Made by a program: the position numbers and the translations under genes. Positions 27,601 through 32,223 of a stretch of 64,000 nt of DNA are shown piece by piece. The notes beneath the pieces are model-generated. The model saw only the letters and a program-made list of their open reading frames with translations, was not told where the DNA came from and did not search any database. Position 1 is the stretch's first letter, and each line of letters begins with the position of its first letter. Origin of the DNA: Asterias amurensis (lineage: Eukaryota > Echinodermata > Asteroidea > Forcipulatida > Asteriidae); assembly GCF_032118995.1 (NCBI RefSeq), contig NC_092649.1:29588927-29652926 (forward strand), given 5' to 3'.

Positions 27601-30600
27601 TCTGGCCAAGTTAGAGCTGGCATACCACCATAACCAGAGTACAATAGTTTTGGTGAAGTTAATTTGTCTAATGAGGAAGGATCCTAGTAAATCATTAAAG
27701 GAAGTTGGGGTTACACACTCTACATGTACAACATAATAGGAAGTGGAACAAATGTAACATTTTTATAATATTCACAGGAGTAGTGCACAAGTACCATAAA
27801 GTTCCACTGTGCAATAAAGTCACATTCATTGAAGTATTTCACGAACATCAAAATTGGCAAAAATAAAATAATAATTATGAGTGACAGAAAAGTGTTTAAG
27901 AATACATTCCCATTTTGGAAGAAGGAATATTAAGCTACTTTGTTTGGTGACCAAACGAGAAAAGAGGAACATTTTTTAACTTACCAATTGTTGGTATTGT
28001 TGTGACTACTTCACCGAGCTTAAGTTTGTACAAAATTGTTGTCTTTCCCGCCGCATCAAGTCCAACTGTGAAAGAGACATACACAAAAACAATGATTGAA
28101 TTATCCTCATCCACACCAAGGCTTCATACTGACAAGCCTAACTAAATGCACATGATCACGAAGGTATAAGCTTTCAGAAAATGTGAGTTTTGTATAGGTT
28201 TTGTAGTTTCCATATTTGAGTAATTGAGGATTTTTGTAAATTTATGTGTCAAACCTCAACTTTTGGTAACAAAATAAAATGATCGATATCAACACAGTTT
28301 AAAATATCAATCAAGTTCTATCAAATTTGGTACCTATCAATTCCTCAGACCTTCCTCTACACAAAATCAACATATCATGTGACCTTGGGCTATCGAGGCC
28401 ACAAGAGGGCTCACTTTAAAAAAAACACATTTTCGACACAAAATCGATTGAGTTTTCCCGCGACCAAAAATGGGTTCTCTGTTACGCGTTAATTTTCTTT
28501 TTTTCAATTCTGTGTTTTTCATTTAAAATTCCAATCAATCGAGAAAAAACTGCTTAATTGTGAAAGGAAATGTCTTCAGCTAACCACAGATGATTTTGTA
28601 CATCAAAATTCGCACTTAAATGATGTCTTTTGGGTGAGTTTTCACAAGCACTTTTCGTGTACAAACAGATACAAATCACGATTGAGGCCTTTCCGTCGAC
28701 CTCCCTAGTAGTAGTAGTGGAAAGGCCAGTCGTAAATAAGCCTTGCAGTTTGGTTAGTTTTGGGACCCTACTCAATTAGGACTGTGTAATGCAAACACAA
28801 ATTGTTTAACCATTAATCTAGTTGCGATAACGTTACCCTCCTCCCGACGGCCGCCCAGGCCGGAGGGTTACGAGTCTCTTTCGAGCGGAAACGGTTGATC
28901 TGGTCCAACACGTACAATTTGGACAGCTAGTCACCAGATTTGCCCCATTTTTACCACTTTCAAAAATCATGACACAAATTCTGAGGGTACTACCTTAATC
29001 CGCAATGTCTAATGCAGCCTGCCATAATACTCAAAACACCATTGAGGAACTATTTCGAAGAAAAATGGACAAAAACTTACCAGAATCGGAGCGAAATTCA
29101 CAGGTTCAAATGTCGAACCTGCGTGGGGCGGAGCTTCGGCTGTACGAGTGGGACGTGTGGTTCAAAAGGTCGTGGCAATGCGTGGGGTGCATTGTGTAGT
29201 CCGGCAACTGTGCACACATGTGCGGTCCGAGGCTATTCCCGCTTGCAGACTCACATCACTACACGGGCGGACGGACGGGATGTTATACTTATCAGCAAAA
29301 CAACACAGTACACGTGCATGTACATATACATGGTGCACAGTACTGTGGTGCATACTGACTCACAATCATGTACATGTACAGTGCATTGTCCTATTTTATA
29401 TACGGGCCCTGATGACATGTCTTTTGATTTCCTTTTTTTTTCCATCTGTATTTTCATCAATTATTTCTTCGTTTGTCCAGTTCCATTTGTAATCTTTTTG
29501 GATTTTATATAGTGTCTTTTTTTATTTAAGAAAGTGTTGTGAATACACCATGAATAGACCGATTGCGATACCAATGTTTACGTATGATCACGTGACCTAC
29601 AGTACCCAAAGAAAAGGACAGATACACAGCAAAGACACGGGAGGATGGGAAGACTCGTACCAATGGACAAGAAATCGGCCGTATATAACTTTGTCTAGCT
29701 AAAAACGAAACCCTTTTTGTAAAGTTGAATGTTGTAACATAAACTTAAATCACACTTGCTGTTTTATATTTCCAATATTCTATTAAAAAATAGGTTTCTT
29801 TTGAGATTATAGACAACGTAATTTTGTGCTGTTATAAATTCCGCAATTTCCGTGCTTAATGTTTGACTACATTTCTTAAAAACTGTAATACCTAAAAGCA
29901 ATTAATATTTCAAGGGAAGCTTTCTACCATCATTAGCTTCAAATTGTGTGAGTTTGATGTAAATATGTTGATATTGTGGTTTGTGTCATACAAAAATTAC
30001 CCAGAGCCTTTAAGATGCACTTGTCAGATTTGGTTGAAAAACAGTCAATAATACTTTTCATCAAAGTCTGATCTTGTTCACGTCATATAGTCGGAAGGCC
30101 AAAACATAGTTTCCTGTATCTCAATGACAGAAAACGTCTGCCTAACGTGTATATACGTTTAAAAGTGTGCCCATATTATCAGTTTTGTGTTTACACAAAG
30201 TCTGTATGGTGACTAGGCCAATTTACTATATTAATTAAAAAGAAATATCCGGTTAGGCCTACCCAAACGATCCGCAATTTATGTCAACGATTAATATTGT
30301 GACTAACCAAAAATCACCACAACAATGAACATGAAAACAGAATGTAAAACATTTTTGCTTAAAAAAAAAGAGCAACTTTAAATCAACTTTACTTTTTAGA
30401 TCACCGGATGAGGTTTCCTCCATGAGGACTACGGCTGATATTCCCATTTTCCGTAGGGATGCGACTTGATCAGCCATCAAAGCCCTCAAGGGGGAGATGA
30501 CAAGTTCAACACCACCATCGTTTAAAAGTGGTGGTATTGCAAAAGTCAAAGTCTTCCCGAAGCGCGTGGGAAGAACTCCCAGAACGTGTTTTATTTACGA

Positions 30601-32223
30601 TGTGTTGTACAATTATCTCCTGTTCGTCTTTTAATTTCGAAGGCAACAAGGGATACTGTTTTTTTAACTTGTCATATGCCGCTTCCATTTTTTTTTCGGT
30701 AACCATGCTGCAGTGACTGAAACAATAGCTGTGATTTCGTTTTGCTACATACTTGCTTGCATATCATTGCATGTAAATTTAGTTGTTTATAGTGGCTCCA
30801 AATTGATTAAAACAACCTTAGGTTGGTAGACGTTTAACGATATTTTAAATGCCCTAAATAAACAGAGCTTCTACAACGCACTCGATCACAACCCCAATAC
30901 ATGTACCTGGGATGGTCAAACGAAATCACTCAAGAAAAAAATAAGCTTGTGGGAGATCAAGCACAGACTTTAAAAATGTCATAAATATACACAGATAAGT
31001 TTAAAATACAAGATTGTATAATACAATTGTTTCAGCGGGTCATTTTCATATCTATAGACATAGAGCGAGGAAGCTTTTATTCACAACACTTTCTTAAATA
31101 AAAAAAGACACTATATAAAATCCAAAAAGATTACAAATGGAACTGGACAAACGAAGAAATAATTGATGAAAATACAGATGGAAAAAAAAAGGAAATCAAA
31201 AGACATGTCATCAGGGCCCGTATATAAAATAGGACAATGCACTGTACATGTACATGATTGTGAGTCAGTATGCACCACAGTACTGTGCACCATGTATATG
31301 TACATGCACGTGTACTGTGTTGTTTTGCTGATAAGTATAACATCCCGTCCGTCCGCCCGTGTAGTGATGTGAGTCTGCAAGCGGGAATAGCCTCGGACCG
31401 CACATGTGTGCACAGTTGCCGGACTACACAATGCACCCCACGCATTGCCACGACCTTTTGAACCACACGTCCCACTCGTACAGCCGAAGCTCCGCCCCAC
31501 GCAGGTTCGACATTTGAACCTGTGAATTTCGCTCCGATTCTGGTAAGTTTTTGTCCATTTTTCTTCGAAATAGTTCCTCAATGGTGTTTTGAGTATTATG
31601 GCAGGCTGCATTAGACATTGCGGATTAAGGTAGTACCCTCAGAATTTGTGTCATGATTTTTGAAAGTGGTAAAAATGGGGCAAATCTGGTGACTAGCTGT
31701 CCAAATTGTACGTGTTGGACCAGATCAACCGTTTCCGCTCGAAAGAGACTCGTAACCCTCCGGCCTGGGCGGCCGTCGGGAGGAGGGTTACGTTATCGCA
31801 ACTACCATTAATCATGAGTCTGACCCTATGAATTGAAGTTTTTCAACAAAATCTTATTCACTTGGTTGCAATTTCACCAAACACCGAAGTTCCATTGTCA
31901 CTGCTGAGCTGAGTGCCGATCAATTCAAAGAAAATGTCAATACAAAAACCCAACCCAACCCCCCCTACATTCACCTCCATGATTAAACATTCCAATTCCT
32001 AGTCATTTGCAAACGGTAGTCAGAAACAAAATGTGCATATAACATCCATGTTGTTACTATGGGCAGTTCTAACACAAAATCGGCAAACTCTGTAATAAAA
32101 CAAAGAGTTAATCAATGGTTTTTCATTATTGACAAGTTGACCTTTTACTTGCTTACCCATTAGTATTCTCACATTCTTCTTGCCAAACAACCTACTGAAC
32201 AAACTCGATATCGTCAGCCCCAT
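24683..32223 (-). CDS. ARF4: ADP-ribosylation factor, ARF4/5 type
   Basis: A small GTPase that recruits coat proteins and effectors to Golgi membranes (family knowledge). Exons: 32157-32223, 27985-28065, 27154-27263, 26381-26452, 25609-25734, 24683-24772. The sum is exactly 546 nt, or 181 aa plus stop, the usual ARF length. Gly2 in [16 protein letters not shown] is the myristoylation site, and this N-terminus is typical of ARF4/ARF5. GTP-binding motifs are all present: GLDAAGKT (P-loop), PTIGFN (switch I), [13 protein letters not shown] (switch II), NKQD and CATQGTGL. The C-terminus LSNALLSTS differs from vertebrate forms. The symbol stands for the class; ARF4 and ARF5 cannot be separated here. 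Intron 1 carries the 3-kb transposon and intron 5 is almost all MITEs. Confidence 0.96.
24919..25413 (+). repeat. Interspersed repeat family B, split by a MITE
   Basis: Same blocks as 7726-8090, but interrupted at 25141-25292 by the TAGACCTT MITE. The host sequence resumes after the insertion with the shared ATTCTCAAAATGC-like block. It is in ARF intron 5. Confidence 0.65.
25141..25292. mobile_element. Short inverted-repeat MITE, copy 2 (TAGACCTT ends)
   Basis: 152 bp from TAGACCTTATCGCAAATACC to GGTATTTGCGAAAAGGTCTA. It is the reverse orientation of 6318-6468 and similar over its whole length. It is nested in the family B repeat. Confidence 0.88.
25425..25577. mobile_element. TTTCACAAA hairpin MITE, copy 2
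   Basis: A long hairpin of AGGACTAGTCCTA motifs between GGGGTCGATTTCACAAAGAG and CTTTGTGAAATCCACCCC. Its end lies about 31 bp from the donor side of ARF exon 5 (25609-25734). Confidence 0.88.
27530..27680 (+). repeat. Interspersed repeat, also at 56255-56390
   Basis: Shares GTTGGACTGC, CTAGTAAACTRATMATGCT and CAGAGTACAAYAGTTT-like blocks with the plus strand at 56255-56390. Both are about 130-150 bp and non-coding. The family is not identified. Confidence 0.5.
28819..31804. mobile_element. DNA transposon with 727-bp terminal inverted repeats, MuDR/Rehavkus-like
   Basis: The element begins TAGTTGCGATAACG (28819) and ends with its complement (31804). The arms, 28819-29545 and 31078-31804, are each 727 bp and nearly identical: long frames on the two arms translate to the same protein. 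Exact 9-bp direct repeats CCATTAATC flank it (28810-28818, 31805-31813). The 1,532-bp core carries a RecQ-like helicase fragment and no transposase that I recognise, so it looks non-autonomous. Long inverted repeats plus a 9-bp duplication fit MuDR/Rehavkus; other superfamilies are possible. It sits in ARF intron 1. Confidence 0.85.
30380..30706 (-). pseudogene. RecQ-like DNA helicase N-terminal fragment inside the transposon
   Basis: The frame opens at an ATG (30706) reading [20 protein letters not shown], then [14 protein letters not shown]. After a shift of reading frame near 30590 it continues [20 protein letters not shown] and [19 protein letters not shown]. These match RecQ/SF2 motif 0, motif I (Walker A TRFGKT) and motif Ia. 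It ends near 30385 at a GTAAAG donor-like site. The DEAH motif and everything beyond it are absent, so it cannot be an active helicase. It may be a captured host exon or the remnant of an element-encoded helicase. Confidence 0.7.

What the first reader, a model, noticed from the sequence alone, without database searches (positions are those of the whole stretch)
28819..31804. Young transposon with 727-bp inverted arms and a RecQ helicase passenger in an ARF intron
Seen: two arms of equal length (727 bp), with long frames translating identically, termini TAGTTGCGATAACG and a 9-bp duplication CCATTAATC. Seen: the core encodes RecQ motifs 0, I and Ia in the minus sense, then stops. Known: MuDR-type elements make about 9-bp duplications and can carry host gene fragments (Pack-MULEs), mainly described in plants. 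Inference: either a Pack-MULE-like capture in an animal, or the decayed core of a family that encodes its own RecQ-like helicase. Near-identity of the arms implies recent insertion or arm conversion. Either reading would be unusual.
Basis: partly seen in the sequence, partly recalled or inferred. Interest (0 to 1): 0.75.

Follow-up and report, generated by a model that had tools for sequence, protein, structure and literature searches.

The report
Deleted jumping gene with helicase remnant
An internally deleted DNA transposon in an animal ARF gene carries the broken start of a DNA helicase that most likely belonged to the transposon family itself and was not picked up from a host gene.

Summary
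In detail: 727-bp inverted arms (1 mismatch), termini TAGTTGCGATAACG, 9-bp duplication CCATTAATC, a minus-strand RecQ fragment, in ARF intron 1. The terminus occurs 714+733 times in the 491.5-Mb genome, control 0. Eleven long copies plus the window share pieces of one interior, cut by different deletions; duplications are 8-10 bp in 11 of 11 copies with both ends. The RecQ exon recurs, same orientation, in a 5.4-kb copy and in a ~8-kb relative whose arms are only ~67-70% alike while the RecQ stretch is 87.5% alike, dN/dS 0.27. No other RecQ in the genome exceeds 49% identity. So the helicase was probably a resident gene. RecQ helicase plus 9-10-bp duplications points to AcademH (paper passages), but no transposase was found between these ends, so membership is unproven. 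The genome also holds six tail-to-tail DUF6589-RecQ pairs, possible relatives. Pack-MULE capture is not supported. Probable host, by assembly size only: Asterias amurensis.

The parts
28810..28818 (.). left target-site duplication CCATTAATC
28819..29545 (+). left inverted arm, 727 bp, begins TAGTTGCGATAACG
29546..31077 (.). core of the internally deleted element
29822..30273 (.). core stretch with no counterpart in the 5.4-kb C8 copy; about 150 bp of it matches another repeat at 85%
30388..30706 (-). broken RecQ exon (motifs 0, I, Ia), frame break inside, motif I mutated
31078..31804 (-). right inverted arm, 727 bp, one mismatch to the left arm
31805..31813 (.). right target-site duplication CCATTAATC

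Best explanation
The element is a non-autonomous, internally deleted member of a terminal-inverted-repeat DNA transposon family that duplicates 9 (8-10) bp of target. Shown: ends, duplications, copy number, shared interior, RecQ exon present in two diverged subfamilies with a coding pattern of change. Inferred: it moves by cut and paste; the autonomous parent encoded its own RecQ-type helicase and a transposase; internal deletions removed the transposase and most of the helicase; the remaining ends are moved in trans. The most likely parent lineage is AcademH (Academ transposons encoding a helicase, 9-10-bp duplications), at about 0.6; that the helicase is a resident gene of the family, at about 0.8.
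For: Genome-wide ends. 11 of 11 copies with both ends (window included) have duplications: 9 bp in 9, 10 bp in 1, 8 bp in 1. Nine 3.2-kb copies share one deletion junction relative to the 5.4-kb C8 copy; the window and the 4.1-kb copy carry other deletions. RecQ exon in C8 (97% to a query largely derived from it) and C5 (85%); the five other RecQ loci hit are 34-49%. C5 keeps left arm, RecQ and a right sub-arm piece in the same order and strand, starts with the same 14-mer and has an inverted partner arm 91% alike about 6.6 kb away. RecQ stretch 87.5% alike against 67-70% for arms; dN/dS 0.27, pN/pS bootstrap 0.12-0.72, five other frames 0.52-3.06. AcademH: 9 or 10-bp duplications, helicase, animals and fungi (PMC10045372 passages); 'RecQ Helicase in Academ' (PMC3627910 passage).
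Against: No transposase found between these termini; no DUF6589, MULE or RecQ_Zn_bind hit falls in any of the 13 long copies. In C5 the exon lies about 1.6 kb from the left end, with about 6 kb to its right, unlike C8 where it lies about 1.3 kb from the right end; about 3.9 kb of the C5 interior was not read. The window-type RecQ is not closest to the DUF6589-linked RecQs of the genome (28-37% identity, against 41-45% to two bacterial RecQ segments; the latter are inflated, being cut to the aligned part). The AcademH paper could not be opened. The dN/dS rests on 64 codons, and both copies carry a stop.
Confidence: 0.72

Rival explanations
1. Pack-MULE-like capture: a Mutator-type element picked up a piece of a host RECQ gene and carries it as a passenger.
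For: 9-bp duplications and long inverted arms also fit MULEs; the genome has 12 MULE-domain matches, several with long open frames.
Against: Three of 12 MULE loci read: none is bounded by these termini; two have a small separate copy nearby. No RecQ donor above 49% identity in this genome. Shared interior in the 12 long copies. Same RecQ in a distant subfamily with a coding pattern of change.
Confidence: 0.1
2. A family of its own, neither AcademH nor MULE, that acquired a RecQ gene of separate origin; works like AcademH but belongs to another or unnamed superfamily.
For: RecQ not specially close to the DUF6589-linked RecQs; no DUF6589 hit in the C5 element.
Against: Duplication length and helicase type match AcademH as described; a 60-95-residue fragment is too short to place.
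Confidence: 0.22
3. KolobokH element (Kolobok with RecQ helicase).
For: KolobokH encodes a RecQ helicase.
Against: Kolobok makes TTAA duplications, and RecQ was reported from fungi (KolobokH) and one red alga; here 8-10 bp of varied sequence.
Confidence: 0.02
4. Assembly duplication or hairpin artefact.
For: Arms are 99.86% alike.
Against: Eleven other long copies with like arms elsewhere in the assembly, ten of them with both ends and their own target duplication.
Confidence: 0.01

Closest known systems
AcademH lineage of Academ DNA transposons (Kojima 2020, Mob DNA 11:15; not held, known here through passages in PMC10045372 and PMC10799480)
   Same: helicase gene in the element, 9 or 10-bp target duplications, present in animals
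   Different: no Academ transposase found here; copies are deleted; relation of this RecQ to published AcademH helicases untested
KolobokH (and Kolobok-1_CCri)
   Same: RecQ helicase as accessory protein, in the red-alga case on the complementary strand
   Different: TTAA duplications; reported from fungi and one red alga (PMC9587614 passages)
Pack-MULEs / MULEs
   Same: about 9-bp duplications, long inverted arms, a gene fragment inside
   Different: no varied passengers in the copies examined, no close donor, no MULE with these ends in 3 of 12 loci read
Rehavkus
   Same: 9-bp duplications, long inverted repeats
   Different: PHD-finger transposase and a minisatellite before the 3' repeat (PMC6446971 passages); no transposase was found here to compare; the word helicase does not occur in that paper's main text

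Membership tests
AcademH | 9 or 10-bp target-site duplication | tested here: met
   10 of 11 copies with 9 or 10 bp, 1 of 11 with 8 bp
AcademH | encodes a helicase | tested here: met
   only as a broken RecQ exon, in 3 of 13 long copies looked at (window, C8:14.60 Mb, C5:11.64 Mb); that the Academ helicase is of RecQ type rests on one sentence in PMC3627910
AcademH | encodes an Academ DDE transposase | tested here: inconclusive
   no Academ model at hand; DUF6589, a guess backed by its pairing with RecQ, has no hit in the copies; 3.9 kb of the C5 copy unread
AcademH | terminal sequence shared with published AcademH families | not testable with these tools
   paper not held, no Repbase
Pack-MULE | ends shared with a MULE transposase-bearing element | tested here: inconclusive
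   3 of 12 MULE loci read, none bounded by these ends; the other 9 not read
Pack-MULE | captured fragment close to a host gene | tested here: not met
   best other RecQ in the genome 34-49% identical
Kolobok (KolobokH) | TTAA target duplication | tested here: not met

The most novel reading that the evidence does not exclude
An animal transposon lineage with its own RecQ helicase, independent of the DUF6589-linked RecQs in the same genome, so that cut-and-paste transposons of this animal have recruited RecQ at least twice, in a family that moved very recently and also spread as copies of under 65 bp.
Probability: 0.25. Interest if true: 0.55.

Novelty: new member of a known kind. Interest (0 to 1): 0.4.

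Why it matters
It shows that a helicase fragment inside a transposon can be the remnant of the element's own machinery and not a captured host exon. Such fragments are easily called host RECQ pseudogenes or Pack-MULE cargo. The DUF6589-RecQ pairs suggest that a protein family of unknown function is a transposase partner of RecQ; the word DUF6589 occurs in no paper of the held library. The family has very recent copies, so what the helicase does in transposition could be tested.

Tried and rejected
MULE partner: 3 of 12 MULE loci read. Termini found there belong to small separate copies (about 75 bp in L079, 457 bp in L080) or are single imperfect matches (L078, L079, L080), not a pair around the MULE. 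A brute-force end search around those MULE frames gave only low-complexity or tandem-repeat pairs and one weak pair in L080. Its printed control on the window listed pairs inside the arms, not the true ends, so that scan is weak.

DUF6589-RecQ element ends: for the C17 pair (9.2 kb read) no convincing inverted repeat with a duplication was found. Its DUF6589 side (L081, 6 kb) has no TAGTTGCGATAA match at up to 3 mismatches and its RecQ side (L073) none at up to 2; nor have L074 and L076. So these pairs are not shown to share the window's ends.

RecQ placement: local alignment and phmmer scores did not separate host-like, DUF6589-linked and bacterial RecQs (30-46 bits). The labels RECQL5 (C4:0.91 Mb) and WRN (C21) are mine, from recall. 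No tree was built because 60-95 residues would not support one.

Junctions: BLAST-edge overlaps suggested microhomology. A crude exact check of five junctions gave 4 bp at one, 1 bp at one, none at two, and one was no simple junction because the 4.1-kb copy holds about 850 bp there that C8 lacks. I make no claim of microhomology.

Pfam scan of all frames of the C8 interior failed because of stops and was not repeated; local tblastn with the C17 DUF6589 exons and three RecQs was used. Literature: no paper held with RecQ, transposon, amphioxus and terminal inverted repeats together.

Full report
Observation. The sequence and repeat search show two 727-nt inverted arms at 28819-29545 and 31078-31804. 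They differ at one base and are bounded by CCATTAATC on both sides. The core holds a minus-strand RecQ fragment (PF00270 E 1.4e-8; TIGR01389 E 8e-15). A frame break splits it, and motif I reads PTRFGKT. The element lies between ARF exon 1 (minus strand, motif at 32223) and exon 2 (motif at 28063). The arm frames that 'translate identically' show no Pfam match for the longest; arm lengths in relatives are not frame-preserving.

Host. The genome held has 491,506,623 bases in 23 contigs. A published Asterias amurensis assembly has 22 scaffolds and 491,537,102 bp (PMC10625585, passages; listing). The sea star is therefore the probable host; this is an inference from size and number, not a sequence test.

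Family. The 14-mer terminus occurs 714 times on one strand and 733 on the other; the reversed control occurs 0 times. Searches with the core (40 of 2213 candidates scored) and the arm (40 of 996) gave, besides the window, eleven long copies whose full extent could be put together from overlapping loci; the number is a lower bound. All eleven start TAGTTGCGATAATCG, one T more than the window's TAGTTGCGATAACG. Eleven copies have both ends (ten of these and the window), and all 11 have target duplications: 9 bp in 9, 10 bp in 1, 8 bp in 1. The other, C8:14597402, lacks the outer 204 bp of its right arm, so its duplication cannot be read. Arms within a copy are 98.1-99.9% alike.

Shared interior, different deletions. 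Aligned to the 5.4-kb C8 copy, the nine 3.2-kb copies lack the same stretch (C8 positions about 1692-4135). The 4.1-kb copy lacks three other stretches and has about 850 bp that C8 lacks. The window copy lacks about 966-3763 and about 4575-4963 and holds about 450 bp that C8 lacks (29822-30273). So the parent was probably longer than C8, unless the extra stretches are later insertions. The nine 3.2-kb copies are 99.0-100% identical in pairs, gaps not counted. Two pairs have no mismatch yet differ in target duplication (C20:13568715 and C20:8877057; C7:1303604 and C8:2035906), so they moved very recently. Both arms of the window copy differ by about 6-9% from the full-length related arms, though one shorter copy (C4:2857778) is 98% alike over 299 bases: either the window copy comes from a lineage with few long members or its arms were homogenised.

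The RecQ exon looks like a resident gene. A protein search found the exon at C8:14601270-14601590 (97% to a query largely derived from it, one stop), in the window (two pieces) and at C5:11640312-11640509 (85%, one stop). The five other loci hit are 34-49% identical: C17, C10 and C2:21.49 Mb (later found beside DUF6589), and C4 and C21, which I take from recall to be host RECQL5 and WRN. In the C8 copy the frame [10 protein letters not shown]...ENSSGDVKSK is followed by a GTAAGT that looks like a splice donor (inference). The C5 copy begins with the exact 14-mer at 11638700. It has an inverted partner arm at 11646053-11646610, 91% alike, which predicts an element of about 8.0 kb (right end and duplication not read). 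Between C8 and C5, arms are 67-70% alike but the RecQ stretch is 87.5% alike; left arm, RecQ and a right sub-arm piece keep order and strand, while several small matches are scattered or inverted. Over 64 comparable codons dN/dS is 0.27 (pN/pS bootstrap 0.12-0.72); the five other frames read as controls give 0.52-3.06. A passenger captured once and carried as junk would not be expected to do this. Two separate captures of the same gene are possible but less simple. Against a uniform layout: in C5 the exon is near the left end with some 6 kb to its right, in C8 and the window it is nearer the right end.

Possible autonomous relatives. Pfam DUF6589 (PF20231), chosen from a recalled suspicion that it is a transposon protein, gave 12 matches, one under its cut-off; a C17 DUF6589 exon as query gave 17. 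Together I count 13 separate DUF6589 loci, 7 of them on contig C10. RecQ-type hits fall in 19 loci, the window family included. Six of 13 DUF6589 loci have a RecQ hit within 10 kb, and all six pairs are tail to tail: C17:15.84 Mb, C10:9.40, C10:8.50, C10:3.99, C2:21.49, C3:27.95; the other seven have none found. In 20,000 uniform random placements of 13 and 13 loci at most one pair arose; I used 13 RecQ loci where I now count 19, and the clustering on C10 makes uniform placement an imperfect null, but three pairs on C10 lie from about 0.9 to 5.4 Mb apart. Frames in the C17 pair are long and open; Pfam gives DUF6589 for two of the three DUF6589-side frames and DEAD for the RecQ frame. However, no shared ends were found, and the window-type RecQ is not closer to these RecQs than to host-like or bacterial ones (the bacterial segments were cut to the aligned part, which inflates their identity). 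So this is an analogy and a lead, not proof of kinship.

Known kinds. [quoted passage not shown] PMC3627910 (passages) mentions 'RecQ Helicase in Academ'. PMC9587614 (passages) describes KolobokH with RecQ and Kolobok's TTAA duplications. PMC10799480 (passages) reports AcademH as low-copy in fungi. PMC6446971 (passages) gives Rehavkus features. On this basis the element works like, and probably is, a deleted AcademH; the transposase test remains open.

Verdict. The finding is real and well seen. It is most likely a non-autonomous relative of a known kind of helicase-encoding transposon, and probably not a Pack-MULE capture. Whether this family has been reported before in this host was hardly searched: one genome paper holds no occurrence of 'Academ'.

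Noticed in passing
window 12797-12850: A second, 54-bp copy of the same family: it starts TAGTTGCGATAACG, ends AACTA and is flanked by TCAATCTGT on both sides.
   Followed up: partly
L007 1501-1558 (C1:4161818-4161875); genome-wide: Ultra-short copies made of little more than two ends: 84 genome-wide with exact 14-mers 4-34 bases apart (32-62 bp in all), 0 in the control. 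Of three checked in loci, one (58 bp, L007) has a perfect 9-bp target duplication and two (L003, L063) show none.
   Followed up: partly
C17:15836942-15841691, C10:9401225-9406601, C10:8499921-8506969, C10:3989917-3997953, C2:21490298-21492336, C3:27944218-27952862: Six tail-to-tail pairs of DUF6589 and RecQ-type genes, possibly two-gene transposons; DUF6589 is listed by Pfam as of unknown function.
   Followed up: partly
C5:11638700-11646731: A predicted 8-kb relative with the same left terminus and a RecQ exon; about 3.9 kb of its interior was not read.
   Followed up: partly
window 29553-29824: The stretch just inside the left arm is 73-77% like many other genomic places; the seven of these fetched as loci (L032-L038) show no such terminus within the bases held, at up to 1 mismatch.
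   Followed up: no
window 50561-50956: Tandem array of a 141-bp unit (a multiple of three), 2.8 copies, 94% matches; coding not tested.
   Followed up: no
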